From contig JAATGK010000204.1 of the NCBI GenBank assembly GCA_015654715.1, positions 1-11,929 of the forward strand: a stretch of 11,929 bases of DNA, given 5' to 3'. Positions 1 to 11,929 of this stretch are shown piece after piece. How positions within the stretch are numbered: position 1 is the stretch's first letter; each line of letters opens with the position of its first letter. Position numbers and translations under genes: made by a program. The notes below the pieces were generated by a model. It searched no databases and was not told the DNA's origin. It was given only the letters and a program-made list of their open reading frames with translations. Source of the stretch: Alphaproteobacteria bacterium. Lineage in GTDB: Bacteria; Pseudomonadota; Alphaproteobacteria; Micropepsales; Micropepsaceae.

Positions 1-887
1 ATCACGACATAGTCTTTGCCGCCGAAACTGTAGACACTTTGCCCGCCCCAGCCAGCCCATTTGGGGTTCTCCGACACCAGCGCCGTCCCGCCGCCCAGCG
101 CCATGTCGCGGCCATCCTGGTCAAGATACGGCCCAGTGATGTCCTTCGAACGGCCGACCGCAACCCGGTAGGTCGAGTTCTTGCCGCGGCAGCAAAAGCC
201 GGTCGAGACGAACAGATAATAATAGTCAGCCCGCTTGAACAGGAACGGGCCTTCGATGGCGCCCTCACCGGCCGCCTTGACGTCTAGCGCCGTTGTGCGC
301 GGGCGCGCCGCCAGCGTGTGCCATTCTTCGGGCGCGGCTAGGCTGACGCGGTCGGCGTTCAGCTTCACCAGTTTGATCCCCGACCAGAACGAGCCGAACA
401 CCATCCACGGCGTGCCCTTGTCATCGGCGATCACATTAGGATCGATCGCGTTCCAATCGTCGCGGCCCGCCACCGAGCGCAGCACGATGCCCTTGTCGTC
501 CCATTTGTAGTTGGGTGAGGCCGGGTCGAGTGTCTGGTTCACGGTCACGCCGATGGCGGAGTCATTCTTGCCGAACCCCGACACCGCATAATAGAGATAG
601 AACTTGCCGCCCGCATAGCTCACGTCCGGCGCCCAGATGTGGCCGTTGAACCGCGCCGTCACGCCCCGCCCCCACACCGGCTCGGCCTCGAACACCCGCC
701 CGCGCGCCAGCCAATGAACACGATCCTTCGAACTGTAGAACGTGATCCCAGGCCCCGTACTGTACAAATAGTACGTCCCCCCATCCAGGCCGATCGCCGG
801 ATCGTGAATGTCGACTTCAGGCGGAGCAGCAAGGGCTGTGGCGGCTAACAGAAGCATCGCGACGGCAGAAAAAATCGAGCGTTTCAT
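1..887 (-). CDS. GH43 arabinan endo-1,5-alpha-L-arabinosidase, 3' end cut by window edge
   Basis: Secreted five-bladed beta-propeller glycosidase predicted to hydrolyse alpha-1,5-arabinan. The frame opens at ATG 887-885 and stays open for 295 codons to the window edge, so about 25-40 C-terminal residues (the YHAYD-type end seen in its two neighbours) are missing. Residues 1-20 form a Sec signal peptide (MKRS, hydrophobic core, ALA cleavage site), unlike the twin-arginine leaders of the neighbours. GH43 catalytic residues are all visible: base Asp29 in HDP, pKa-modulating Asp149 in AIDPN, acid Glu212 in IEGPF. WAPD (86-89), FGSFWSG (164-170) and the vicinal cysteines of FCCRG (231-235) are also family features. 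It starts 23 bases after the preceding GH43 gene and is preceded by a modest GGAA ribosome site, so it is probably the third gene of one operon. An exo-acting arabinofuranosidase or xylosidase of GH43 is possible but less likely from these motifs. Confidence 0.93.
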   Translation of the reverse strand, partial: MKRSIFSAVAMLLLAATALAAPPEVDIHDPAIGLDGGTYYLYSTGPGITFYSSKDRVHWLARGRVFEAEPVWGRGVTARFNGHIWAPDVSYAGGKFYLYYAVSGFGKNDSAIGVTVNQTLDPASPNYKWDDKGIVLRSVAGRDDWNAIDPNVIADDKGTPWMVFGSFWSGIKLVKLNADRVSLAAPEEWHTLAARPRTTALDVKAAGEGAIEGPFLFKRADYYYLFVSTGFCCRGKNSTYRVAVGRSKDITGPYLDQDGRDMALGGGTALVSENPKWAGWGGQSVYSFGGKDYVV

Positions 888-910
888 TGGTGCGTTCCGG
901 TGTTGTTGCG

Positions 911-1945
911 TCACATCAAGGCCGTCGGCCAGCCGTCAGACGACCAGACCAGCGGCGCGATGCGCAGCGTCGGTGTGCCCTGCTTTTGGGCATCGTAAGC
1001 ATGATAAACGATGTAATCCTGTCCCGCATTGCGCAAGACGGCGGCGTGTCCGGGGCCATGGAAGCGGTCGCGATCGCGAAAGTCGGCGCGTAACAGAACC
1101 GTACCATAACCTTGTAGCATCGGCTTTCCGTCGCGGCCGAGATAAGGCCCGAGAACGTCGCGGCTCCGTCCGATCACGGTGTAATATGTGCTGTTCACGC
1201 CTTTGCAACACCAGTCGTACGACGCCACAAGATAATACCAGCCGCCGCGCGCGAACAAGAACGCCGCCTCGATCGGATCCGGCGCACCATTCGGCACCTG
1301 ACGTTCGGCCAACGGCTTGATTTCCAGCGGCGCGCCCGGACGGCCGCTTTCCCGATCGAGAGCGACGATTTTAAGACCGCTCCAAAAGCTGCCGAAAGCA
1401 AGCCAGCGGCGGCCCTGGCGATCGATGAGATGGGCTGGATCGATGGCGTTGTAATCGTCCCGCTCTTGCGATTGCAAAACCAGCCCATGATCCGTCCAAT
1501 GCGCGGACGAGAGCGTCGGCGTCGTCGCCAGCCCGATCGCGGACCGGTTCGATCCACCCGTGGAGCAGGCGTAATAGAGCCAGTAGCGGCCATTGAAAAA
1601 GGTGATGTCGGGCGCCCAGATATCGCGGATGCCCGGGATCGCCGCCAACGCCCAATTCGGCACGCGCGGCAACACATCTCCCGACAGCCGCCAGTGGATC
1701 AGATCCGGCGACGTCCGGCACGGAATTTGCGGCTTGGTTGGATCGCCGTGCGGCGCCAGCGTCGTCGAGAAAATATAATAGGTGTCGCCTTCGCGGATGA
1801 TCGCCGGATCATGGACGCCGGTGATGTCGCCGGAGAGCCGGTCGTTCAGCCGCGGCGGCGTTTCGGCGTGCGATGGGCCGAGCGCAAAGCTCCCAGCCAG
1901 CGCCGCCAAGGCCCACCGCCGATTGACTGTGAAATCGTCCATCAT
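911..1945 (-). CDS. GH43 arabinan endo-1,5-alpha-L-arabinosidase (second of three)
   Basis: Complete 344-residue GH43 enzyme, a usual length for a single-domain endo-arabinanase acting on alpha-1,5-arabinan outside the cytoplasmic membrane. The leader VNRRWALAALAG (7-18) followed by a hydrophobic stretch and SHA-E looks like a twin-arginine signal. Catalytic residues: Asp46 in VHDP, Asp169 in AIDP, Glu226 in IEAAF. IWAPD (109-113), FGSFWSG (184-190), the Cys pair in WCCKG (245-249) and the C-terminal YHAYD (315-319) are present. The start is ATG 1945-1943, with a second ATG directly after it. A GAAGG Shine-Dalgarno overlaps the TGA of the upstream GH43 gene only 9 bases away, so translation is probably coupled. 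The C-terminal 35 residues are nearly identical in pattern to the upstream gene, indicating tandem duplication. Confidence 0.94.
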   Translation of the reverse strand: MMDDFTVNRRWALAALAGSFALGPSHAETPPRLNDRLSGDITGVHDPAIIREGDTYYIFSTTLAPHGDPTKPQIPCRTSPDLIHWRLSGDVLPRVPNWALAAIPGIRDIWAPDITFFNGRYWLYYACSTGGSNRSAIGLATTPTLSSAHWTDHGLVLQSQERDDYNAIDPAHLIDRQGRRWLAFGSFWSGLKIVALDRESGRPGAPLEIKPLAERQVPNGAPDPIEAAFLFARGGWYYLVASYDWCCKGVNSTYYTVIGRSRDVLGPYLGRDGKPMLQGYGTVLLRADFRDRDRFHGPGHAAVLRNAGQDYIVYHAYDAQKQGTPTLRIAPLVWSSDGWPTALM

Positions 1946-1954
1946 GACATGCCT

Positions 1955-3001
1955 TCAGATGATCGCCGTCGGCCATCCGTCGGCAGACCAGACAAGCGGC
2001 GCGATGCGCAAAGCTGGTACTCCCTGACGGCGTGCATCATAGGCATGGTAGACGATATAATCGCGGTCGCCGTCGCGCAGTATCGACGCGCCGCCCGGCC
2101 CACGCCAACGCGATCCGGAATCGTGTTTCAGGACGATCGAGCCATTGCCCGAAGACATCGCAAAGTGGTTGGCGTCGCCGTAAGGCCCGGTGATGTTAGG
2201 GGCGCGTCCGACCACGGTGTAGTAGTTGGAATCGGCGCCGCGGCAGCAGAAATCGAAGGCACAGAACAGATAATAATAGCCGCCGTGCTCGACGATGAAC
2301 GGCGCTTCGATCGCGTCGAGTCCGGGATCGTCGGTCGGCCGTTTGGCAAGCGAATGAACTTGCGGTTTGCCCGGGAACGGCTTGCCGGTGGCCGGATCGA
2401 GTTCGATCAGTTTGATCCCACCCCAGAAGCTGCCGAAAACCAGCCAATGCTTGCCGTCGCGATCAACGATATGATTGGGGTCGATCGCATTGAAGTCGTC
2501 TTCGGGCCGAGATTCAAAAACGAGGCCCTGATCGATCCATTTGAAGTTGGGGGATGCCGGATCGAGCGTCGCATTGGTCAAGAGGCCGATCACCGACCGG
2601 TTCTTGCCGAAGGTCGAGCAGGCAAAATAGAGCAGATAGCGGCCGCCGACATACGAGATGTCGGGCGCCCAGACGCCCTCCGTTCCTTGGACGCGTTCGC
2701 TCGCCCATTTCGGCAGATCGGACAGCACGCTGCCGCCTTTGTCCCAGTTCACCAGATCTTTTGAGTACCGCCAGGGAATATGGCCGCCGGCACCAGGCTG
2801 ATCGGTGCTGAAGACGTAATAGGTATCGCCGGCACGGATCGCGCAAGGATCGTGAACCGGCGAGACATTGCCGCTGAGACGGCTGTTGAGCGGTTCGGGC
2901 GTTTGGCCGCCGGCGGGCAACAGGGCTGTTGCACCTGCGGCCGCCATGCCGCTCAAGAGAAGTCCACGGCGATTGAGATTGCTTAAGTGATGGACCGACA
3001 T
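1955..3001 (-). CDS. GH43 arabinan endo-1,5-alpha-L-arabinosidase (first of three)
   Basis: Complete 348-residue secreted GH43 glycosidase, the promoter-proximal member of the three-gene cluster. Start ATG 3001-2999 is preceded by GGAG (complement of 3008-3011) at good spacing. Residues 9-35 form a twin-arginine-like leader (LNRRGLLLSG, then an Ala/Gly-rich hydrophobic stretch). Catalytic triad: Asp51 in VHDP, Asp174 in AIDPN, Glu232 in IEAPF. WAPD (111-114), FGSFWGG (189-195), the Cys pair FCCRG (251-255) and YHAYD (318-322) match the endo-arabinanase branch of GH43. The protein is expected to act on arabinan or arabino-oligosaccharides in the periplasm or at the cell surface. The preceding 238 bases contain repeats that may regulate this operon independently of the TonB-receptor gene upstream. 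Substrate is inferred from motifs and from the araBD context. Confidence 0.95.
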   Translation of the reverse strand: MSVHHLSNLNRRGLLLSGMAAAGATALLPAGGQTPEPLNSRLSGNVSPVHDPCAIRAGDTYYVFSTDQPGAGGHIPWRYSKDLVNWDKGGSVLSDLPKWASERVQGTEGVWAPDISYVGGRYLLYFACSTFGKNRSVIGLLTNATLDPASPNFKWIDQGLVFESRPEDDFNAIDPNHIVDRDGKHWLVFGSFWGGIKLIELDPATGKPFPGKPQVHSLAKRPTDDPGLDAIEAPFIVEHGGYYYLFCAFDFCCRGADSNYYTVVGRAPNITGPYGDANHFAMSSGNGSIVLKHDSGSRWRGPGGASILRDGDRDYIVYHAYDARRQGVPALRIAPLVWSADGWPTAII

Positions 3002-3007
3002 GCGAAA

Positions 3008-3011
3008 CTCC
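3008..3011 (-). promoter_or_regulatory. Ribosome-binding site of the first GH43 gene
   Basis: On the minus strand this reads GGAG, seven bases before ATG 3001-2999, and supports that start. Confidence 0.6.
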
Positions 3012-3080
3012 AGGGCTAGTTCGAACCGATCACGACGTGCGGCGAACTACGAACGGGATCGAGACGGGGGCACGCGACGA

Positions 3081-3201
3081 TCGTTGGACATACCCGCACC
3101 GGGAAAAAGCGTGGCGGCCATATTAAAAGGCATGATCCGCCACAGTTATCCGAAGAGGGGTATTCGAAAATACCGGGAGAGACGCCGTCGCTGGACATAC
3201 C
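3081..3201. repeat. Direct 14-mer repeat pair upstream of the GH43 operon
   Basis: TCGTTGGACATACC at 3081-3094 recurs as TCGCTGGACATACC at 3188-3201, in the same orientation with one mismatch and start points 107 bases apart. A related half copy follows the second one (ACATACCAG 3195-3203, ACATGCCAG 3204-3212). Both copies lie in the non-coding spacer between the TonB-receptor stop and the first GH43 start. They are plausible binding sites for a regulator of the GH43 operon; function is inference. Confidence 0.45.
3111..3143. promoter_or_regulatory. Inverted repeat around an AT-rich core, possible operator/promoter
   Basis: GTGGCGG (3111-3117) and CCGCCAC (3137-3143) are a perfect 7-base inverted repeat with 19 bases between. 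Inside sits a smaller GCC (3117-3119) / GGC (3129-3131) pair. The core reads TTTTAATAT on the minus strand, the most -10-like sequence in this spacer, but no convincing -35 lies 16-18 bases upstream of it. It is 110 bases before the first GH43 start. Operator or RNA hairpin are both possible. Confidence 0.35.
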
Positions 3202-3227
3202 AGACATGCCAGAAAACGCCTCTCCCG
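3159..3227 (-). terminator. Hairpin cluster after the TonB-receptor gene, possible terminator
   Basis: Thirteen bases past the receptor stop, CGGGAGAGGCG (complement of 3217-3227) can pair over 11 positions, one of them G-U, with CGTCTCTCCCG (complement of 3174-3184) across a 32-base loop that itself contains CTGG/CCAG. A second short hairpin GGTATT-CGAA-AATACC (3159-3174) follows at once. There is no run of T after either stem, so it is not a textbook intrinsic terminator. It may attenuate or protect the 3' end between receptor and GH43 genes. Confidence 0.4.
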
Positions 3228-3239
3228 TACGACATCCGG

Positions 3240-5936
3240 CTACAGTTTGTAGCGCAGCCCCAGTTCGATGGTCTGGTCGAAGCGGCGCGTATCACGCGGA
3301 TACACGGCTCCGAGCGATCCTCTGCCGAAGCTGTCCTGGAAATAGCTGTCCAGGAGATTGGTGGCGTCGAAGGTGAAGGTCAGCTGGTCGGACCACTTGT
3401 AGCTGGCCGACAAGTCGAGCCACGGCTGCGATTTGGCGTAAATCGTATCGGGGTTCTGGCCACCGCCCGGCGCGGCACCTTCGTTGAAGCCGGCGCGCCA
3501 GTTGTAGGCCACGCGGAACGACACCGGACCGTACTCGTAGATACCGACGGTATTGAAGGAGTACTTCGAGATATTCTGGAACGCTCCGTCAACATAGGTG
3601 CCGTTCAACTGGATGCCGAGACCACTCCAATAGCTCGGCAGGAAATCGAAGAACTGGGTGTAGTTGACTTCGACGCCGTCGATATGCCCGTCGCCGCCGT
3701 TCTCGGGCAATGTAACCTGATAAACGATGCCGCCGATGGTTTGCGGCGTGACATAGCTGCCGATGTAGCCGGCCACCGCCCGGTAGAACACGGTGCCGGA
3801 CAGAATGTTGGCCGGGCCGAAATAGTATTCGACCGACAGATCGACGTTATCCGACTTTTCCGGCGTCAGGTTTGGATTGCCGCTGGTACCGGAACCCAGC
3901 AACGTTGCCGTCGAGGCGGACAGCGACAGGCCAGGATTGAGTTGCGAGAACGTCGGCCGAGTCACGGTGCGGCTCGCCGCCACGCGGACGAACAGATCGT
4001 CCTCGAGCTTGGCCCGCAGGTTGATACTCGGCATCCAGTCGGCGACCTCTTTGGAGCTCTCGGTCGCACTGTAGGCGAAGGTGTAGCCGGTCGGGGTTTG
4101 GGTGGTGACCAGCGTATTGCCCTTCATCTCCGATTTGGTGTCGACGACGCGCAAGCCGATGTTGCCGTCAACGGGAAGTCCACCAAGTCCGAACTCGAAG
4201 TTGCCCTTCACGTAAGCGGCATAGCTCTGCTCGCGATCGTCGAACGCATTGGTCGGGTCTTCGGCCGGGCCCGCCACCGGTTGCCCGAACAGCGTCCGCA
4301 ACTTGCCGACGTTGTTGAAGATCCAATCCGGATTGGCATCCATCCACTTCGTGATGCCGAACTTGCCGTCGAACTGGCTGCCGCCGGTGGTCCAATAGGA
4401 GCCCGGCATGGATCCCAGGGTTATACCCGCCCCGGGGTTGCCGTGATAATTGCCGCAAGCGACCGAACCGTCGCGGGCGACCTGCTGGGCATAATAGGGA
4501 CTGCTGGGATCGGGGAAGCTGTCGCAATCCTGCCCGCCGGTGTTGTCGCCCCGGTTCCGGGCAAAGCGGTTGGCATAGCGGAAGCCGGCTTCCACCGACG
4601 TGAGAGTCTTCGCGCCCGTTTCGTAGTTGACGTCGGCGCGCCAGTCGATTTCGTTACCGCTCTGCCTCACCCACTGATCGTACCACTGGCGCAAGACCAT
4701 ATTGTTCGGGTCGGTCACCGCCGCCGTCGGCACGTTCATGTAGGGCGTGCCGGTGCCATTGTAGTTGAAGTCCGCGACGTACGAGGGTGGATCGCCCGGA
4801 TTGTAATGGGTGTCGAGAATGTAACCGGTCTGGGCGAAGCGGCTGTCGGTGTAATCGAACTCGGTCGACAGGGTCACGGAATTGCCCGTCCAAGTCGCCC
4901 CGGTCGCGAACTGATAGGTGTCCGTCTTTGCGCGATAGGACTGATTGCTGGTCAGATCGTAAAAGCCGGCCTTTACCGTCTTCACCTCATCGGTGCCAGG
5001 GAACACCGTGGCGGTCGACGCATCGGCACCGATCCACGGCAGGCCAACGAAGAAATCGGCCGAGTTCGGGTTGCGATAGCGCGTATAGAACAGCTCGGCA
5101 TAGACTTCCGTGTTGGAATTGGGACGCCACTGGAGCGATACGTCGGTCGCCAAGCGTTCGCGCCGGCCGAGAATCGACTGGGCACCTTCCGTCAGCGGTA
5201 AAAAGGCAACGCCGCCAGCCCCGGTCGATCCGCTTACGGGACCGATCGACTGAGACGAGATGTAGTTGTCGAGAATCTCTTCTTTGTAGTGGCGCTTTGA
5301 ATAGTTGACGTCGAACAGCAACCCGATTTCGCCGATACCTGTGTTCCAGCGATCGCTGATCAGCAGGCTGGCGGTTGGATCAATGTGATCCGAAAGCATT
5401 GAGTCGATGGCGCGCGCGCCACCGGCGATCTCAAGGCCGTCGAAATCGAACGGCCGGTGCAGCCGGACATCGATCAGGCCGGCGATGCCGCCTTCGAGAT
5501 CTGTCGACTGGGCCGACTTGTGCACGTCAACGCGCTGCAACAACTCGGCCGGAATGTCCTGAAGCGACACATAGCGGCCTGTGGACGTGAAGATTTCACG
5601 TCCATTCAGAAGCGTGGCGACATCCGGCAAACCGCGGATCAGAAGCTGATTGGCTTCGGCTGCGTTGCGGCTAACTTGAATGCCCGTAACATGCTGCAAA
5701 GCTTCGATCACGTTGTTGTCGGGCAGCTTGCCGATATCCTGCGCCACGATCGAGTCGACGATCTGCGACGACTTCATCTTGATGTCCTGGGCGGACTGCA
5801 GACTCGCACGAACGCCCGTCACAACGATCGTCTCCATGCTTGAGGAGTCGTTATTTTGGGCGAAAGCGCACTGTAACGTGGCTGCCATCATAGCCAACCA
5901 GGATACGGTAGTAGCGAGTCTCGATTGATTGCTCAT
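3240..5936 (-). CDS. Internal start: STN-less form of the TonB-dependent receptor
   Basis: ATG 5936-5934 lies in the same frame as the long receptor and would give an 898-residue protein, a normal size for a carbohydrate TonB-dependent receptor. It is preceded by AGAGGGG (complement of 5942-5948) five bases away, the strongest Shine-Dalgarno in this block. It begins with a complete Sec signal peptide MSNQSRLATTVSWLAMMAAT, ending in CAFA-Q. A buried signal peptide with its own ribosome site argues that this is a genuine start, either the only receptor start (STN encoded separately) or one of two products. Proteomics or N-terminal data would decide. Confidence 0.6.
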   Translation of the reverse strand: MSNQSRLATTVSWLAMMAATLQCAFAQNNDSSSMETIVVTGVRASLQSAQDIKMKSSQIVDSIVAQDIGKLPDNNVIEALQHVTGIQVSRNAAEANQLLIRGLPDVATLLNGREIFTSTGRYVSLQDIPAELLQRVDVHKSAQSTDLEGGIAGLIDVRLHRPFDFDGLEIAGGARAIDSMLSDHIDPTASLLISDRWNTGIGEIGLLFDVNYSKRHYKEEILDNYISSQSIGPVSGSTGAGGVAFLPLTEGAQSILGRRERLATDVSLQWRPNSNTEVYAELFYTRYRNPNSADFFVGLPWIGADASTATVFPGTDEVKTVKAGFYDLTSNQSYRAKTDTYQFATGATWTGNSVTLSTEFDYTDSRFAQTGYILDTHYNPGDPPSYVADFNYNGTGTPYMNVPTAAVTDPNNMVLRQWYDQWVRQSGNEIDWRADVNYETGAKTLTSVEAGFRYANRFARNRGDNTGGQDCDSFPDPSSPYYAQQVARDGSVACGNYHGNPGAGITLGSMPGSYWTTGGSQFDGKFGITKWMDANPDWIFNNVGKLRTLFGQPVAGPAEDPTNAFDDREQSYAAYVKGNFEFGLGGLPVDGNIGLRVVDTKSEMKGNTLVTTQTPTGYTFAYSATESSKEVADWMPSINLRAKLEDDLFVRVAASRTVTRPTFSQLNPGLSLSASTATLLGSGTSGNPNLTPEKSDNVDLSVEYYFGPANILSGTVFYRAVAGYIGSYVTPQTIGGIVYQVTLPENGGDGHIDGVEVNYTQFFDFLPSYWSGLGIQLNGTYVDGAFQNISKYSFNTVGIYEYGPVSFRVAYNWRAGFNEGAAPGGGQNPDTIYAKSQPWLDLSASYKWSDQLTFTFDATNLLDSYFQDSFGRGSLGAVYPRDTRRFDQTIELGLRYKL

Positions 5937-6302
5937 GGTTTCCCCTCTGTCTTTACAGACGTTTTTTTTAATCGGCGAAGAGATCGTTATGATCCCTTCT
6001 GCCGTGCGGCTGACCGTGAGGTCAGTCCCCTTGAGCATCATCTGGAGAGCGTCTACGACGTCGAAAGTACCCTTGATCTCTGGAGTTACGACGGATTGAA
6101 GCGGCTCGCCCGCGCCGATGATCTGCACATCGGCTTGACGCGCGAGTTCCGGAATTGATTTGCTAGCCGTTTCCGAAGGAATGTCGAACTGCCGTACCTG
6201 CGCACACGCAGGAATACCCTCAAGCATCCCGGCAAGCGTGATGCCACAGCTGACCGCGAATCTGAGATTACAGCGTTCCACACCCCCCGCCCATTTCCGC
6301 AC
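3240..6302 (-). CDS. TonB-dependent receptor with N-terminal STN signalling domain, possibly a fusion of two coding units
   Basis: Outer-membrane active transporter with FecA-type signalling potential, 1020 residues from GTG 6302-6300. Residues 1-34 form a signal peptide (ITLAGM core, ACA-Q). Residues 36-108 are an STN domain (FDIPSETASKSI ... GTFDVVDAL ... ITIS). Residues 123-148 are a second full signal peptide (MSNQ start, hydrophobic TTVSWLAMMAA, AFA-Q). Then come a TonB-box-like ETIVVTG (157-163), a plug (about 165-285; GKLPDNN, LIRGLPDV, LEGGIAGLIDV) and a beta barrel to the C-terminal GLRYKL. Cys593 and Cys616 probably form a loop disulphide. The 84-base gap behind FecR and the STN domain indicate signalling through FecR and the sigma factor. 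Its position before three arabinanases suggests arabino-oligosaccharides as ligand (inference). The frame joining STN and receptor depends on an A8 run. A second start at GTG 6281 is also possible. Confidence 0.88.
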   Translation of the reverse strand: MRKWAGGVERCNLRFAVSCGITLAGMLEGIPACAQVRQFDIPSETASKSIPELARQADVQIIGAGEPLQSVVTPEIKGTFDVVDALQMMLKGTDLTVSRTAEGIITISSPIKKNVCKDRGETMSNQSRLATTVSWLAMMAATLQCAFAQNNDSSSMETIVVTGVRASLQSAQDIKMKSSQIVDSIVAQDIGKLPDNNVIEALQHVTGIQVSRNAAEANQLLIRGLPDVATLLNGREIFTSTGRYVSLQDIPAELLQRVDVHKSAQSTDLEGGIAGLIDVRLHRPFDFDGLEIAGGARAIDSMLSDHIDPTASLLISDRWNTGIGEIGLLFDVNYSKRHYKEEILDNYISSQSIGPVSGSTGAGGVAFLPLTEGAQSILGRRERLATDVSLQWRPNSNTEVYAELFYTRYRNPNSADFFVGLPWIGADASTATVFPGTDEVKTVKAGFYDLTSNQSYRAKTDTYQFATGATWTGNSVTLSTEFDYTDSRFAQTGYILDTHYNPGDPPSYVADFNYNGTGTPYMNVPTAAVTDPNNMVLRQWYDQWVRQSGNEIDWRADVNYETGAKTLTSVEAGFRYANRFARNRGDNTGGQDCDSFPDPSSPYYAQQVARDGSVACGNYHGNPGAGITLGSMPGSYWTTGGSQFDGKFGITKWMDANPDWIFNNVGKLRTLFGQPVAGPAEDPTNAFDDREQSYAAYVKGNFEFGLGGLPVDGNIGLRVVDTKSEMKGNTLVTTQTPTGYTFAYSATESSKEVADWMPSINLRAKLEDDLFVRVAASRTVTRPTFSQLNPGLSLSASTATLLGSGTSGNPNLTPEKSDNVDLSVEYYFGPANILSGTVFYRAVAGYIGSYVTPQTIGGIVYQVTLPENGGDGHIDGVEVNYTQFFDFLPSYWSGLGIQLNGTYVDGAFQNISKYSFNTVGIYEYGPVSFRVAYNWRAGFNEGAAPGGGQNPDTIYAKSQPWLDLSASYKWSDQLTFTFDATNLLDSYFQDSFGRGSLGAVYPRDTRRFDQTIELGLRYKL
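5942..5948 (-). promoter_or_regulatory. Strong internal ribosome-binding site
   Basis: Reads AGAGGGG on the minus strand, five bases before ATG 5936-5934 inside the long receptor frame. It decides in favour of translation beginning at the second signal peptide. Confidence 0.6.
5962..5969 (-). other. A8 homopolymer joining the STN and receptor frames (candidate slippage or frameshift site)
   Basis: The minus strand reads ATT AAA AAA AAC GTC: eight A residues, containing A-AAA-AAC in the phase of a slippery heptamer. As given, the frame runs on into the receptor. With seven A the STN frame would end at the TGA of CCATGA, overlapping the internal receptor ATG. With nine A it would end at TAA after CGT CTG. 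Polymerase slippage, a programmed frameshift, phase variation or a sequencing error at this run would each switch between fused and separate proteins. Confidence 0.5.
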
Positions 6303-6386: not shown

Positions 6387-7466
6387 TCAGCGAACGATCC
6401 GAACTTCTTTGGGTTCGACTTCGATTCGTAGACCGAGAACAGACGCGGCAACTTTGGCAAAACCGACGGGATCATTCGAAGCGAACAACCCTGTGATCGT
6501 ACGACGCTCGAACGCCGGGTCGACGATGATTCTCGTGTCACTGTAACGCGCGAATTCTGTGGCTGCATCCGCGAGCGTTTCGTTTTCAAACGCTATCCGG
6601 CCGAACTGCCAGACCAACTGGCGCGCCACTTGCGGGTGCGAAACGGGGTGAACGGTGATCGGAGCGTCACGCATAACCAAGGCCTGCGTCTCCGCAACGG
6701 CGCGGACAGGATGAGCACTCGGCCTGTCGCGGCGGATCACCTCGACCACACCTTCCTGCACCAAAACCTGAATCGGGCGCTTCGGCAGCAGGCGCACGGT
6801 AAAACTCGTCCCTACCGCACGGACTTCGGTATCGAAAGCAGTCACGACGAACGGACGCTTTCTGTTTTTCGCGACCCTAAAAAGGGCTTCACCGCACACA
6901 AGCCGGATGCTCCGCATGGCCTCCGTATAACGGACCGTCATCTTGGAGGCGGTATTGAGCGTCACGACAGAACCGTCCGGCAGGTTTACGACGCGGGTTT
7001 CCCCCACCGTCGTGGTGAATTCCGTCCGCGCGCGTTCCCACAAATCCGTGCCCACCACACCAGCCACCGCAAAGGACGCCGCGGCGCTGCCGGTCAAGAC
7101 GATCCGGCGGCGCGTCCAAACTTGCGACGTCGTCACAGCCGCCGGCGTCTCGGCAACCATCGCGTTCAGAGCGCTGCTCGACACGTCAGCCGAGAGCACC
7201 GGAGTTTTGGGTAATGCCGCGCTCGCGTCGTCGGTGGGAACCGCCATTTCGGCAATGGACGCGCGTAAGGCGTCCGCACCGACCGCACGAAGCCGATCCA
7301 GACGCATAAATACAGCTTGGGCCCGTGCGAAAGCGCCGACATGCCGGATATCCTCGGCTTGCCACGACGCAAGTCGAACCCGTTCGTCCGGGGTCAGATT
7401 TCCGCGGACTACCTTTGCAGCCCATGCGGCTGCGAGCCTGTCAATCTCATCGTTTAAGGAACCCAT
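6387..7466 (-). CDS. FecR-like anti-sigma / sigma-regulator protein
   Basis: Inner-membrane sensor that relays receptor occupancy to its sigma factor. The 359 residues show a cytoplasmic N-terminal domain of DUF4880 type (about 6-60; EIDRLAAAWAAKV, ARAQAVF). A single membrane segment (121-141) follows, just after a TRRR stretch. The periplasmic FecR domain (about 150-245) contains LPDGSVVTLNTAS, GEALFRVAK and RAVGTSFTVR. The C-terminal part (287-359; GRIAFENETLADAATEFARYS ... ITGLFAS ... VRIVR) is STN-like, the region known in this family to meet the receptor's signalling domain. ATG 7466-7464 overlaps the sigma-factor stop by 20 bases, implying coupled translation and a fixed ratio. The neighbouring STN receptor is the obvious partner. 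Whether it inhibits or activates the sigma factor cannot be read from sequence. Confidence 0.94.
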   Translation of the reverse strand: MGSLNDEIDRLAAAWAAKVVRGNLTPDERVRLASWQAEDIRHVGAFARAQAVFMRLDRLRAVGADALRASIAEMAVPTDDASAALPKTPVLSADVSSSALNAMVAETPAAVTTSQVWTRRRIVLTGSAAASFAVAGVVGTDLWERARTEFTTTVGETRVVNLPDGSVVTLNTASKMTVRYTEAMRSIRLVCGEALFRVAKNRKRPFVVTAFDTEVRAVGTSFTVRLLPKRPIQVLVQEGVVEVIRRDRPSAHPVRAVAETQALVMRDAPITVHPVSHPQVARQLVWQFGRIAFENETLADAATEFARYSDTRIIVDPAFERRTITGLFASNDPVGFAKVAASVLGLRIEVEPKEVRIVR

Positions 7467-8037
7467 CTTCCGAGCTTACTTCATCTACCTTATTATTGGA
7501 CGAACGAGCCCGAGCTTTTCCCCCGCGTCCGAACACTTTGATTAGCACTAAGACGCCCTTCGCTAAGTTATTCTCGACAACTTTTTCCGTGACTCCAAGA
7601 CGTTGGGCCGTTTCCTTTTGCGATAATCCTTCCACGCGGCGCATAATCAGCGTTTCCCGACAAGCTTCTGGAACCTGGGCCAACGCGTTCGCGACTTCCA
7701 GAATCTCATCCCGAAACTCCATACGCTCTTCCGCACTCACTTCGGGTAACGCCACTTCGAGCTGCTCCAGACTTTCGCCCGAAATGATGGACACCACCCG
7801 CGAGCGCCGAATATGATCGATGATAATGCCCCTCGCCGTCTGGATCGCGTATTGCCGCGGATAACGGATCGACTCGATCCCCGGGGCGGAGAGAATGCGC
7901 GCGTACATCTCCTGGATGACGTCATCGATATCCAGATCCGCGACGTAAGCGCGCTTCAACCGGGCACGAACAAGCGCCTCATGGGGCAGCACATTTCGCG
8001 CCAGCCACTGCGTTCGCTCTTGGTTGCTTAACGTCAT
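7447..8037 (-). CDS. ECF-subfamily RNA polymerase sigma factor (FecI-like)
   Basis: Extracytoplasmic-function sigma factor, 196 residues, with region 2 at about 20-80 (LDIDDVIQEMYARI, YAIQTARGIIIDHIRRSR) and region 4 at about 105-168 (LAQVPEACRETLIMRRVEGL, helix-turn-helix SQKETAQRLGVTEKVVENNL). A basic/polar tail RGGKARARSSNN follows. I chose ATG 8037-8035 because it is the only ATG before region 2 and gives a normal family length. The frame stays open back to a TTG at 8169, but those 44 residues are Cys-rich and unlike any sigma factor. No good Shine-Dalgarno precedes 8037, so translation may be weak or the start differs. It overlaps the FecR-like gene by 20 bases. Likely targets are the receptor gene and perhaps the GH43 operon (inference). 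Confidence 0.92.
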   Translation of the reverse strand: MTLSNQERTQWLARNVLPHEALVRARLKRAYVADLDIDDVIQEMYARILSAPGIESIRYPRQYAIQTARGIIIDHIRRSRVVSIISGESLEQLEVALPEVSAEERMEFRDEILEVANALAQVPEACRETLIMRRVEGLSQKETAQRLGVTEKVVENNLAKGVLVLIKVFGRGGKARARSSNNKVDEVSSEDGFLKR

Positions 8038-8472: not shown

Positions 8473-8505
8473 GGATGGCGGATGGCGGATGGCGGATGGC
8501 GGATG
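8473..8505. repeat. Heptamer tandem repeat (GGATGGC, 4.7 copies)
   Basis: Four exact GGATGGC units (8473-8479, 8480-8486, 8487-8493, 8494-8500) and a partial fifth (GGATG, 8501-8505). The unit is not a multiple of three and the array is non-coding. Such short arrays change copy number by replication slippage. Confidence 0.9.
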
Positions 8506-8732: not shown

Positions 8733-10490
8733 TCAGAAGAACGTGATGTAGAAGGCGATGATGACGGCCACCACGATCAGGCTGAGCACCACATCGCCGG
8801 TGCCCCAGCTGGCGCGCGTGGCCGCTTTTTCCTCCGGCGTAGCGCCGAACCACGAGTATTTGAGCTTGCCGAGGTCGGGTGCTTTGGTGAGCAGGCTGAT
8901 GATGACCATCAGCGCCGCCGAGGTCACCAGCAGTATCTGGCACCAGTAAAGCCAGTTGATGATCCAAATGTCGAAGATCATGCCGTACTGCGCTTTCAGC
9001 GGTGCCAGCGCCGCGTGATACTGGTCGAGGGTAATGGTGTTGTGGAAGAGTTGCTGCTTGAGCGCGGCAACCTCCACTTTGTGACCCTTCATCACGATGT
9101 CGGCGCCGAGGCGGGCGAACCCGCCGATGATGCCGATCAGGAACGACCAGAAGGCTGCCGGCGCCGTGGCGCGCTTCCAGAACACGCCCGCGATGAACAA
9201 CACGACGATCGCCGGCGACAGGTAGCTCTGCACATTCTGCAGATATTCGTAGAGATTCGACGACAGCATCTTGATCACCAGCACCCAGCAGATGCCGAGG
9301 ATCACAATCACGCCGGTAGCGATGCGCCCGACCGTCACTTCCTCACGGCCCGATGCGTTCGGCCGCCATTCGCGATAGAAGTCCATGGTGAACAACGTCG
9401 CCGAGGCGTTGAACTTCGAGGCCAGCGACGCCATCAGCGCTACGATCATGCCGCAAGCCACAAAGCCGCGCACGCCGTGCGGCAGAATCTGCGCCACCAA
9501 CGAGGTGTAGGCCGCATCGCCGTTCGGGGTATGGAAGCCGGAGCCCGGCATCGACACCAGCGCAAACGCGATCATGCCGGGTACCAGGAAGATGAATACC
9601 GGCGTGAGCTTGAGGAAGCCGGCGAGGATCGTGCCGCGCCGTGCTTCCTGCTGGTTCTTGCCGGCAAGAACGCGCTGAACGATGTATTGATCGGTGCACC
9701 AGTACCAGAAGCCGATGATGGCGGCACCCGGCAGCACCGCAGCCCACGACCACTCCGGATCATGGAAAGAACGGATGAGGTGGATGTTGGCGCCTGCGGC
9801 AGCGACCATCTGGTGCCAGCCGAAGAACAAATTGCCGTGGCCGAGTTCCTGCAGGCCGATGAAGAGAATCGCGACCGAGCCAAAAATCAGAACCGGGGTC
9901 TGCAGCACGGCAGTGTACATGATGACGCGCAAGCCCCCGAGCACCGTGTAAAGCCCGGTCGTGAGCGCCAGACCCAACGCAATCGCCCAGAACACATCCA
10001 TCTGAAAGCCGAACACGTTGACGCTATCAATGCCGAGAAGCGTGCGCACCACCACGTCGCCGGCATAGATGGTGGCGGCAATTTTGGTCAGCACCAGCGA
10101 GGCCATGGTCAGCAGGCTGAGGAGGTTGCGCGAGCCGCGGGAGAAGCGGAGTTCAAGGAACTCCGGCATGGTGAAGACCTTCATGCGATCGTAAAGCGGC
10201 ACGAAGACCCAGCCCAAAACCAGGATGATCCAGCCCTGCATTTCCCAATGGGCCATGGCCATGCCGGTGGCAAAGCCGGCGCCGGCCAACCCGACGAGGT
10301 GCTCGGAGCCGATGTTGGACGAGAAGATCGAGGTACCGATCTGCAGCCAGTTCGAGTCGCGGCCGGACAGGAAATAGTCCTTGCCGGATTCGTTCTTTTT
10401 GCGCATCGACATCATGACGACGGCCGTCATGGCCGCGACGAACGCCGCAACGATCCACCAGTCCAGTGCGTTGAACACCGAATTGCCCAT
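8733..10490 (-). CDS. SGLT-type sodium/solute symporter (SSS family), probable arabinose importer
   Basis: Cytoplasmic-membrane secondary transporter of 585 residues driven by a sodium gradient. About 14 hydrophobic helices are visible, from WWIVAAFVAAMTAVVMM (11-27) to the terminal VVLSLIVVAVIIAFYITFF. Family motifs: DYFLSGRD (38-45), SSNIGSEHLVGLAGAG (57-72), WEMQGW (82-87), WYWCTDQYIVQRVLAGK (262-278, very close to animal SGLT) and ASLASKFNASATLFTMDFY (354-372, the sodium-site helix). A hydrophilic stretch at about 467-503 interrupts the last helices. ATG 10490-10488 follows AAGGGGGAG at a suitable distance and lies 21 bases after the araD stop, so the gene belongs to the ara operon and ends it before the hairpin terminator. 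Arabinose as substrate is inferred from araB and araD; galactose, glucose or oligosaccharides cannot be excluded. Confidence 0.95.
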   Translation of the reverse strand: MGNSVFNALDWWIVAAFVAAMTAVVMMSMRKKNESGKDYFLSGRDSNWLQIGTSIFSSNIGSEHLVGLAGAGFATGMAMAHWEMQGWIILVLGWVFVPLYDRMKVFTMPEFLELRFSRGSRNLLSLLTMASLVLTKIAATIYAGDVVVRTLLGIDSVNVFGFQMDVFWAIALGLALTTGLYTVLGGLRVIMYTAVLQTPVLIFGSVAILFIGLQELGHGNLFFGWHQMVAAAGANIHLIRSFHDPEWSWAAVLPGAAIIGFWYWCTDQYIVQRVLAGKNQQEARRGTILAGFLKLTPVFIFLVPGMIAFALVSMPGSGFHTPNGDAAYTSLVAQILPHGVRGFVACGMIVALMASLASKFNASATLFTMDFYREWRPNASGREEVTVGRIATGVIVILGICWVLVIKMLSSNLYEYLQNVQSYLSPAIVVLFIAGVFWKRATAPAAFWSFLIGIIGGFARLGADIVMKGHKVEVAALKQQLFHNTITLDQYHAALAPLKAQYGMIFDIWIINWLYWCQILLVTSAALMVIISLLTKAPDLGKLKYSWFGATPEEKAATRASWGTGDVVLSLIVVAVIIAFYITFF

Positions 10491-10511
10491 GAACGCGTAC
10501 TCCCCCTTACT

Positions 10512-11204
10512 TTATTTTTGTCCGTAGTAGGCTTTCGGCCCGTGCTTGCGCAGAAAGTGCTTGTCGAGCAGCACCGATTGCATTGCGCCGGTGGCGGGAT
10601 TGATGCGAAGCGTCTCGCTGGCGAGATGCGCCAGATATTCGAGGATCGCCGCGTTGTGCACGGCCTCGTGCGCGTCCTTACCCCAAGCGAACGGGCCATG
10701 GCTCGATACCAGCACCGCCGGCTTATGCAAGGGGTTGATCCCCTTGAACGTCTCGACGATCACCTCGCCGGTGTTGGCTTCGTATTCGGTGTTGATCTCG
10801 TCCGCGGTCATCAGTCGTGTGCAGGGAACGTCGCCATGCCAATAATCGGCATGAGTAGTGCCCATGGCGGGGATCGGCAGCTTGGCTTGCGCCCAGGCCG
10901 TGGCGAACAGGCTGTGGGTGTGGACGATGCCGCCCACCTCCTTGAAGGCGCGGTAAAGCACCAGATGGGTCGCCGTGTCGGAGGAAGGCCGCAGATTGCT
11001 CTCCACCACCTTGCCGGTTTCGAGACTGACCACGACCATGTGCTCGGGCGTCATGCCGTCATAGGAGACGCCCGATGGTTTGATGACGACGAGGCCGCTT
11101 TTGCGGTCGATGCCGCTGACATTGCCGAAGGTCTGGATGACGAGACCTTCCGTCACCAAGTCGAGATTGGCCTGGCAGACGGCCTGTTTCAGCTCTTCCA
11201 GCAT
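10512..11204 (-). CDS. araD: L-ribulose-5-phosphate 4-epimerase
   Basis: Converts L-ribulose 5-phosphate to D-xylulose 5-phosphate, the last dedicated step of bacterial L-arabinose breakdown, in the cytoplasm. The 230 residues match the 231 of the E. coli enzyme and align without gaps through most of it. Features of the class II aldolase fold: GNVS (27-30), KPSG (42-45), SSD with metal ligand Asp76, HTH with ligands His95 and His97, catalytic Asp120 in HAD, and the third histidine ligand His169 in [11 protein letters not shown]-terminal Tyr pair (226-227) lies near the expected active-site tyrosine. I chose ATG 11204-11202: it forms a TGATG overlap with the araB stop and has GGAG six bases upstream. 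An upstream in-frame extension to 11273 exists but only covers araB sequence. Confidence 0.97.
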
Positions 11205-11929
11205 CAAGCACTCCGTACTCGGTCGCGAATATCCATCAGCCGCTTCATCACCGGGGCGAGATTGCCCTGCCATGTCGTGGTTCCGAAAGCGTCATGCAAG
11301 GTGCGATAGATTGCATAAAGCTCGACGTAGACCGCGTGGGCGGCCGCATCCGGCTGATAAACCGTGTCTTTCAGGCCGGTCATGGCGCTTTGCGCAGAGG
11401 CGAAGTCCGCATACACACCGGCAACGACCGCGGCGGCAACCGCCGAGCCGAGGGCTGGGGTCTGGGCCGAGCGCGATATCTTCATCGGCCGGCCGGTGAC
11501 ATCGGCATAAAGCTGCATGACGAAAGCATTCTTCTCGGCGATGCCGCCGCAGTTGATCACCTCGTCGACTTTGACGCCGTATTCTTCGAACCGGTTGATG
11601 ATGGTGAGGGCGCCAAAAGCGGTCGCTTCCACCAGGGCGCGGTAGATTTCCGCCGGGCTGGTATAAAGCGTCTGGCCGAGGAGAAGACCGGTCAGGCGCT
11701 GATCAACCAGGATGGTGCGGTTGCCGTTGTTCCAATCGAGCGCCACCAGGCCGGATTCGCCGGGCTTGAGCTTGGCGGCCATTTCGGTGAGCTCGACGTG
11801 CGAAAGCCCGGCCGGTTGGATGTACTCGACAAACCAATTGAAGATGTCGCCGACCGCCGATTGGCCAGCTTCGAGCCCGAAATAGCCCGGCAACACGCTG
11901 CCGTCGACAATGCCGCAAAGGCCAGGAAC
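11204..11929 (-). CDS. araB: L-ribulokinase, C-terminal part (5' end beyond the window)
   Basis: FGGY-family sugar kinase that phosphorylates L-ribulose with ATP. Only the last 241 residues are present, open at the window edge; family members are about 530-570 long, so over half is missing. Visible blocks are [20 protein letters not shown] (5-24 of the fragment) and [12 protein letters not shown] (23-34), which are characteristic of AraB rather than xylulokinase. DWNNGNRTI (65-73) and the C-terminal FGGY nucleotide-binding region [17 protein letters not shown] (128-144) with [15 protein letters not shown] (157-171) follow. The stop TGA (11206-11204) shares one base with the araD start, giving tight translational coupling. 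Rhamnulokinase or another FGGY kinase is less likely given araD next door. Confidence 0.94.

What the first reader, a model, noticed from the sequence alone, without database searches (positions are those of the whole stretch)
5934..5972. A8 run decides whether STN domain and TonB receptor are one protein or two
Seen directly: ATT followed by eight A, in-frame through to the receptor. Removing one A puts the STN frame onto a TGA overlapping the receptor's own ATG (ATGA), a classic coupled gene junction. Adding one A gives TAA two codons later. Both near-miss frames ending at or just before a start with a strong Shine-Dalgarno is unlikely to be chance. It suggests an ancestral separate STN gene plus receptor gene, now fused, phase-variable or slipping. 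A runs of this length are known sites of bacterial transcriptional slippage, and A-AAA-AAC is a known frameshift heptamer type. If real, the cell may make fused and separate signalling domains from one locus, tuning FecR signalling.
Basis: partly seen in the sequence, partly recalled or inferred. Interest (0 to 1): 0.72.

Follow-up and report, generated by a model that had tools for sequence, protein, structure and literature searches.

The report
Receptor gene with two nested starts
In a group of soil bacteria, genes for a nutrient-sensing outer-membrane receptor carry a second, hidden start site with its own export signal, so one gene probably makes both a signalling and a transport-only receptor; the run of eight A bases that drew attention looks incidental.

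Summary
The sequence observation is right: on the minus strand A8 (5962-5969) lies in an open frame joining an STN domain to a TonB receptor; A7 would stop at ATGA, A9 at TAA. The A-run as switch is not supported: of 22 other copies in the genus only one has an A8 in the linker, 21 are open from STN into the receptor, and the search for free-standing relatives gave no intact split pair. In all 23 copies a start codon (22 ATG, 1 TTG) sits at the same alignment column behind a strong Shine-Dalgarno sequence and opens a second signal peptide just before the TonB box. Codon choice is held there while residues vary; STN itself is under purifying selection. Three loci have a broken or decayed STN but keep this start; one receptor in another family has the same layout with GTG. 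Most likely each gene makes two precursors: a long STN transducer and a short STN-less transporter, each with its own signal peptide. The block travels with sigma-factor and FecR genes; here it fronts an apparent arabinan-use locus. Two products are inferred, not shown. New variant of a known kind.

The parts
7447..8037 (-). ECF sigma factor gene, first gene of the signalling operon
   Evidence: Pfam Sigma70_r2, Sigma70_r4_2
6387..7466 (-). FecR-type anti-sigma regulator gene
   Evidence: Pfam FecR 2e-17
6279..6281 (-). Likely start codon (GTG) of the long form
   Evidence: Lines up with the starts of several relatives; Shine-Dalgarno energy -8.3. An upstream in-frame GTG at 6300-6302 is the mechanical ORF start
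6201..6281 (-). First signal peptide (SP1), cut predicted after ACA
   Evidence: Read from sequence; no signal-peptide predictor available
5979..6200 (-). STN signalling domain
   Evidence: Pfam STN 9.6e-4, below the curated cut-off; phmmer to the signalling domains of the pseudobactin 358 receptor (1.4e-5) and FpvA (1.8e-4), weakly PupB (0.089); strands and helices at residues 29-101 of the model
5962..5969 (-). A8 run of the finding; not conserved
5941..5948 (-). Internal Shine-Dalgarno sequence AGAGGGGA, in the STN-receptor linker
   Evidence: codons before the start held across copies
5934..5936 (-). Internal in-frame start codon ATG of the short form
   Evidence: Same alignment column in 23 of 23 copies
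5859..5936 (-). Second signal peptide (SP2), cut predicted after AFA
   Evidence: Net positive start, hydrophobic core, AFAQ by a simple script
3243..5858 (-). TonB box, plug and beta-barrel of the receptor, common to both forms
   Evidence: Pfam Plug and TonB_dep_Rec_b-barrel; model
5827..5827 (-). Seam: from here through the receptor and the genes behind it (window 1-5827) the window is 90% identical to L039, which shows no DNA similarity upstream and no STN, FecR or ECF relative

Best explanation
This is a cell-surface-signalling operon (ECF sigma, FecR, TonB transducer) whose transducer gene has two in-frame translation starts. From the upstream GTG the ribosome makes signal peptide 1 + STN + linker + receptor, the signalling transducer. 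From the internal ATG, behind its own Shine-Dalgarno sequence written into the linker, it makes signal peptide 2 + receptor, a transport-only form that lacks the FecR-contacting domain. Shown by sequence comparison: fusion, conserved internal start, conserved codons before it, selection on STN, retention of the start where STN is broken. Inferred: that both proteins are made, that the short form is abundant, and that their ratio sets the gain of FecR signalling. The A8 run is a chance feature of a lysine-rich linker.
For: Same-column start codon in 23 of 23 copies, 22 ATG and one TTG, itself an initiation codon. Strong Shine-Dalgarno in 23 of 23 versus 8 of 1048 other starts, spelled through different residues (DRGET, QEEREG, EEGKA, DTEGEA). 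Real energy beats the mean of synonymous recodings in 21 of 23, individually p<=0.05 in 7 of 23. Among same-residue comparisons the codon is identical in 82% of cases over the 9 codons before the start, against 42-68% in most other stretches; difference for -7..-1 +0.28, bootstrap 0.21-0.35. Mean synonymous difference is lowest in the linker (0.25 against 0.42 STN, 0.55 SP2) while STN pN/pS is 0.26 (16 chosen pairs). SP2: hydrophobic core and AxA-type end in 23 of 23, net positive start in 22 of 23; 48 of 56 database relatives keep SP2. L098, L106 and L107 have a broken or decayed STN but keep Shine-Dalgarno, ATG and SP2. Internal energy is stronger than the best long-form candidate in 19 of the 22 copies with one. 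A receptor in another family of the class (L111/L175) has ECF, FecR, STN and an internal GTG (-8.4) at the matching place.
Against: No RNA, ribosome or protein data. Copies were gathered with a profile that included the linker, which favours conserved linkers, and I set the limit of the 23 after seeing them. The synonymous-recoding test is weak gene by gene, because the acidic and glycine residues already spell much of the Shine-Dalgarno sequence. Codon conservation rises from about 27 codons upstream (0.72, 0.76), not only at the Shine-Dalgarno sequence, and blocks have recombined, so part of it may reflect recent exchange. The STN match is below Pfam's cut-off. Seven of 56 fused relatives have STN but no SP2. 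A used start cannot be told from a retained but silent one.
Confidence: 0.7

Rival explanations
1. Only the long protein is made; the internal Shine-Dalgarno sequence and signal peptide are leftovers from when the receptor had its own start, and the linker is kept as protein.
For: Receptors of the same clade without STN start exactly this way (L039, L041-L045), so descent from a separate receptor gene is plausible. Fused frame kept; indels in the DNA alignment come in threes.
Against: Leftovers should decay; 23 of 23 keep start, Shine-Dalgarno and SP2. The linker shows the pattern of a nucleotide constraint more than a protein one: low synonymous change with relatively free residues.
Confidence: 0.18
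2. The long precursor is made and then cut at the internal signal peptide (by signal peptidase or a periplasmic protease), giving a free or membrane-tethered STN domain and a receptor, as suggested for FoxA of Pseudomonas aeruginosa.
For: SP2 keeps a signal-peptidase-type end in 23 of 23. FoxA was seen with and without its signalling domain (in a prc mutant) and the overproduced domain protected FoxR (PMC11637429, abstract, section 12 and part 1 of section 13 read).
Against: Does not explain the Shine-Dalgarno conservation. Topologically awkward: after SP1 has exported STN, a stop-transfer SP2 would leave its cut site on the cytoplasmic side (reasoning, not tested). May coexist with the best explanation.
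Confidence: 0.07
3. A8 slippage, phase variation or -1 frameshifting at A-AAA-AAC splits STN from receptor.
For: A8 and an in-phase A_AAA_AAC are there; a -1 shift would end STN at TAA 5953-5955; A7 would couple the STN stop to the receptor start.
Against: A8 in 2 of 23 copies; in the other (L093) neither shifted frame stops near the start. No consensus RNA structure around the junction. Relatives are fused without it. A chance A8 is not rare.
Confidence: 0.03
4. The A count is an assembly error and STN and receptor are separate genes in this organism.
For: Draft metagenome bin; homopolymers are error-prone.
Against: The window's frame agrees with 9 fused database relatives of the same receptor and with the other copies that have DNA.
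Confidence: 0.02

Closest known systems
TonB-dependent transducers of cell-surface signalling (FecA, FpvA, PupB, FoxA)
   Same: STN + TonB box + plug + barrel, with ECF and FecR upstream; FoxA and FpvA are among the best structural matches.
   Different: Second start site and second signal peptide between STN and TonB box. In a control of 66 STN loci all 6 cassette members score for both; of the other 60 one scores (L143), where the hydrophobic stretch is the TonB box/plug start.
FoxA processing in P. aeruginosa (PMC11637429)
   Same: Receptor present with and without the signalling domain.
   Different: There by proteolysis, as the authors propose; here probably by a second translation start.
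VreA of P. aeruginosa PUMA3 (PMC2729926, passages read)
   Same: STN-like domain with ECF and sigma-regulator partners, not attached to a barrel.
   Different: A separate protein with a TolA/TonB-like second domain; no nested receptor.
Bacterial N-terminal proteoform pairs from in-frame internal starts (PMC11005335, passages read)
   Same: One gene, two in-frame starts, sometimes with different predicted localisation.
   Different: The passages seen describe short forms that lack a signal peptide (OmpX, PagC); here the short form has its own.

Membership tests
Cell-surface-signalling transducer (STN TonB receptor) | N-terminal STN domain | tested here: met
   Pfam below cut-off (19.4 against 28.4 bits), but a solved signalling domain matches (2a02 E 1.4e-5) and the secondary structure fits
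Cell-surface-signalling transducer (STN TonB receptor) | ECF and FecR genes adjacent | tested here: met
   Window; FecR upstream in 22 of 23 copies, ECF in 19 of 23; the 4 copies without an ECF hit (L077, L078, L097, L098) have little upstream sequence on their contigs
Cell-surface-signalling transducer (STN TonB receptor) | STN controls FecR and ECF activity | not testable with these tools
   needs genetics
In-frame internal-start (dual proteoform) gene | Conserved internal start with a ribosome-binding site held at nucleotide level | tested here: met
In-frame internal-start (dual proteoform) gene | Both proteins detected | not testable with these tools
   no expression data
Slippage or phase-variable gene | Homopolymer conserved at the site, with frame-dependent outcome | tested here: not met
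   A8 in 2 of 23; frame fates differ
Slippage or phase-variable gene | Mixed run lengths in reads or RNA | not testable with these tools
   no reads
Programmed -1 frameshifting gene | Slippery heptamer with a stimulating structure, conserved | tested here: inconclusive
   In-phase A_AAA_AAC present in the window; no consensus structure across the 23 copies; the window's own downstream sequence was not folded singly

The most novel reading that the evidence does not exclude
A class of dual-start TonB transducers, common in one genus and seen once in another family of the class: one gene encodes a signalling and a non-signalling receptor, each with its own Sec signal, and the ratio of the two ribosome-binding sites sets the gain of FecR signalling. 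The ECF-FecR-STN-second-start block is shuffled among different receptors as a plug-in sensor unit, its junction lying at or just behind the internal start so that the receptor stays expressed even if the sensor part is lost.
Probability: 0.45. Interest if true: 0.75.

Novelty: new variant of a known kind. Interest (0 to 1): 0.62.

Why it matters
How signalling and transport roles of one receptor are kept apart is open: recent work proposes that the FoxA signalling domain is cut off its receptor (PMC11637429). Here evolution appears to have written the separation into the gene. It gives a simple test of whether the proportion of STN-bearing receptors sets signalling strength, it suggests such signalling at a plant-sugar locus, and it warns that annotation can miss the second product: for Rhizomicrobium electricum one long receptor protein is listed (P0008). 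It also shows how a sensor module could be moved between receptors without breaking them.

Tried and rejected
Rejected: A8 as a switch; split ancestral genes surviving in relatives (4 proteins, sequences, none an intact free-standing STN gene; that search reaches only relatives sharing exact words).

Led nowhere: consensus RNA structure at the junction (0 pairs); Rfam (one hit below its gathering score); ten literature searches, of which none listed a paper that I recognised as describing an internal start or second signal peptide in such receptors; only open-licence papers are held and most listings were seen as titles and abstract starts, so this is no proof of absence.

Choice of copies: one search prints a capped list. 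The 23 are the window and L077-L098, the full-length profile matches down to 93 bits. The next full-length ones were fetched, looked at and not counted: L099 (65 bits; hydrophobic stretch, start unclear) and L102 (35 bits; ATG before a signal-peptide-like stretch, Shine-Dalgarno only -5.2), and L100, L101, L103, L104 (ordinary linkers). The start in each copy was picked as the in-frame start with the best energy in a 32-codon stretch.

Controls: a first control lost 30 of 66 loci because its script found no linker, and mis-placed some; the repeat scored 66 of 66. One search was an intermediate version that mis-placed five loci. In one search L111 is missed by the hydrophobicity limit although it has the layout by eye. 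In one search, 48 of 56 proteins are judged to have SP2: the script said 49, P0166 rejected by eye; 7 lack it (P0165-P0171); P0128 could not be scored.

Full report
What is there. The window lies in a draft genome bin (3.13 Mb, 518 contigs, 74% complete). A named member of the same genus group is Rhizomicrobium electricum: its contig of 375,169 bases (L040) has the length of contig C6 of G001, and both hold the same receptor. On the minus strand the order is ECF sigma factor (7447-8037), FecR (6387-7466), then one open frame from 6302 to 3240 holding STN, plug and barrel. Beyond it are three GH43 glycosidases, and on the other side an SSF transporter, a class II aldolase and an FGGY kinase, which together look like arabinan/arabinose use (inference from family names; pathway knowledge recalled).

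The observation. As a statistical object the A8 is unremarkable (25 of 200 shuffles have one).

Relatives. The protein search listed the 120 best of 2925 hits. Nine of these, P0003-P0011, cover 97-100% of the query and carry STN fused in the same frame, with the linker ending in an internal methionine and a signal-peptide-like stretch; the other 111 cover 82-89%, among them the closest (P0001, 93%), which begins without STN. A search with the N-terminal part gave 55 proteins; of the 56 examined (these and P0011) 48 keep the internal signal peptide, including some with clearly different receptor sequence behind it (P0139, P0143, P0145, P0155, P0160, P0164; by eye). The residue at the start position is methionine in these 48 except P0161 and P0157, where valine stands there (P0157 has a methionine ten residues on; by eye, codons unknown). 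A profile search of 69 genus genomes, with DNA fetched, gave 23 copies including the window. One of them, L098, has a TGA inside STN. The other 22 are open from STN into the receptor (L087 and L095 run off their contigs), with linker lengths differing by whole codons.

The internal start. In all 23 copies the start codon falls in the same alignment column: 22 ATG, one TTG (L086). Energies are -8.7 to -12.7 kcal/mol, mean -10.2, against mean -2.5 for 1048 other in-frame starts, of which 8 reach -8.7; none of 269 ATGs does. Picking the best energy in a 32-codon stretch carries a mild selection effect, but the choice falls on the signal-peptide start every time. Receptors of the same clade without STN use starts of the same kind (-10.9 to -15.1 in L039 and L041-L045, best candidate each). 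The encoded residues differ between subgroups (DRGET, DEGET, QEEREG, EEGKA, DTEGEA), yet the nucleotide motif stays. Synonymous recoding weakens it on average (mean -7.3), with the real sequence better than that mean in 21 of 23 and individually significant in 7 of 23.

Selection. Codon identity at same-residue sites climbs to 0.82 in the 9 codons before the start, from 0.42-0.68 in most of the alignment; the two blocks just upstream also stand at 0.72 and 0.76 (20 representatives, 67 pairs, not independent). In 16 chosen pairs the mean synonymous difference is 0.25 in the linker, 0.42 in STN and 0.55 in SP2; pN/pS is 0.26 in STN, 0.30 in SP2 and 0.62 in the linker. So STN and SP2 are kept as protein and the linker more as RNA. 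That fits two used starts.

Natural tests. L106 has a remnant of the STN tail with stop codons (its receptor frame runs off the contig) and L107 an out-of-frame STN remnant before a 1003-residue frame (both by eye from three-frame translations), yet both keep Shine-Dalgarno, ATG and SP2; L098 has a nonsense codon in STN and an open receptor frame from the internal start. L105, L106, L108, L109 and L110, which match only the SP2 end of the profile, show no ECF or FecR in the fetched sequence (0 of 5), whereas FecR lies upstream in 22 of 23 copies and ECF in 19 of 23. These are mostly draft assemblies, so single stops could be errors.

Modularity. From 5827 on, the window matches L039 at 90% nucleotide identity through the receptor and the genes behind it, while upstream L039 shows no similarity, no STN, FecR or ECF relative, and has its own start. 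L078 and L086 are 90-98% identical over about 480 bases up to the internal start and 63% then 48% right after it. The junction is therefore a seam of exchange at or just behind the internal start.

Structure. The model (mean pLDDT 81.5) shows STN at residues 29-101, a low-confidence stretch at 104-155 that holds SP2 as a short helix, then plug and barrel; the best solved matches include PfeA, FoxA and FpvA. No consensus RNA structure was found that would hide the internal start.

Specificity and spread. In 66 STN loci scored alike, all 6 cassette members have both a strong Shine-Dalgarno and a hydrophobic stretch behind it; of the other 60 one scores (L143), where the stretch is the TonB box and plug start. 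In 385 genomes drawn from the class no match at E <= 1e-12 covers the whole profile outside the genus, and none in the 96 genomes of the family outside the genus among the listed matches. But the partial match in G217, of another family, when read, shows ECF, FecR, then STN, a GETN linker and an internal GTG with energy -8.4 opening a signal-peptide-like stretch that ends in ALAQ. Only two genomes of that family are held, and the second shows only STN-part matches.

Mechanism. Best reading: two precursors from one gene. Internal energies exceed those of the best long-form candidate in 19 of the 22 copies that have one (the long start is uncertain in several), which suggests, but does not show, that the short form is common. 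An STN-less receptor could import but not contact FecR; published work shows that the signalling domain binds and protects the anti-sigma factor (PMC11637429, abstract, section 12, part 1 of section 13), so the ratio of forms should matter. Not shown here: expression, ratio, or effect.

Noticed in passing
window 3-3001 and 8733-11929 (minus strand): Three tandem GH43 glycosidases downstream of the receptor and an SSF symporter, class II aldolase and FGGY kinase upstream: apparently an arabinan-use locus under cell-surface signalling.
   Followed up: partly
window 8473-8505: Short tandem repeat, four GGATGGC units and a partial fifth, between the sigma factor and symporter genes (by eye).
   Followed up: no
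L078 and L086, junction at the internal start: Near-identical STN block in front of diverged receptors: recent exchange with the break at the internal start codon.
   Followed up: partly
cassette alignment, codons -27 to -10 before the internal start: Codon conservation is raised well upstream of the Shine-Dalgarno sequence (0.72-0.76); no RNA structure explains it.
   Followed up: partly
L175 (G217:C9:90500-98500), minus strand: ECF-FecR-STN receptor in another family of the class with an internal GTG and second signal-peptide-like stretch.
   Followed up: partly
L102 (G023:C20) and L099 (G025:C106): More distant STN receptors with a hydrophobic stretch before the TonB box; Shine-Dalgarno weak or start unclear.
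   Followed up: partly
L093, linker: A second linker with A8 (in-phase A_AAA_AAG), but its shifted frames do not stop near the start.
   Followed up: partly
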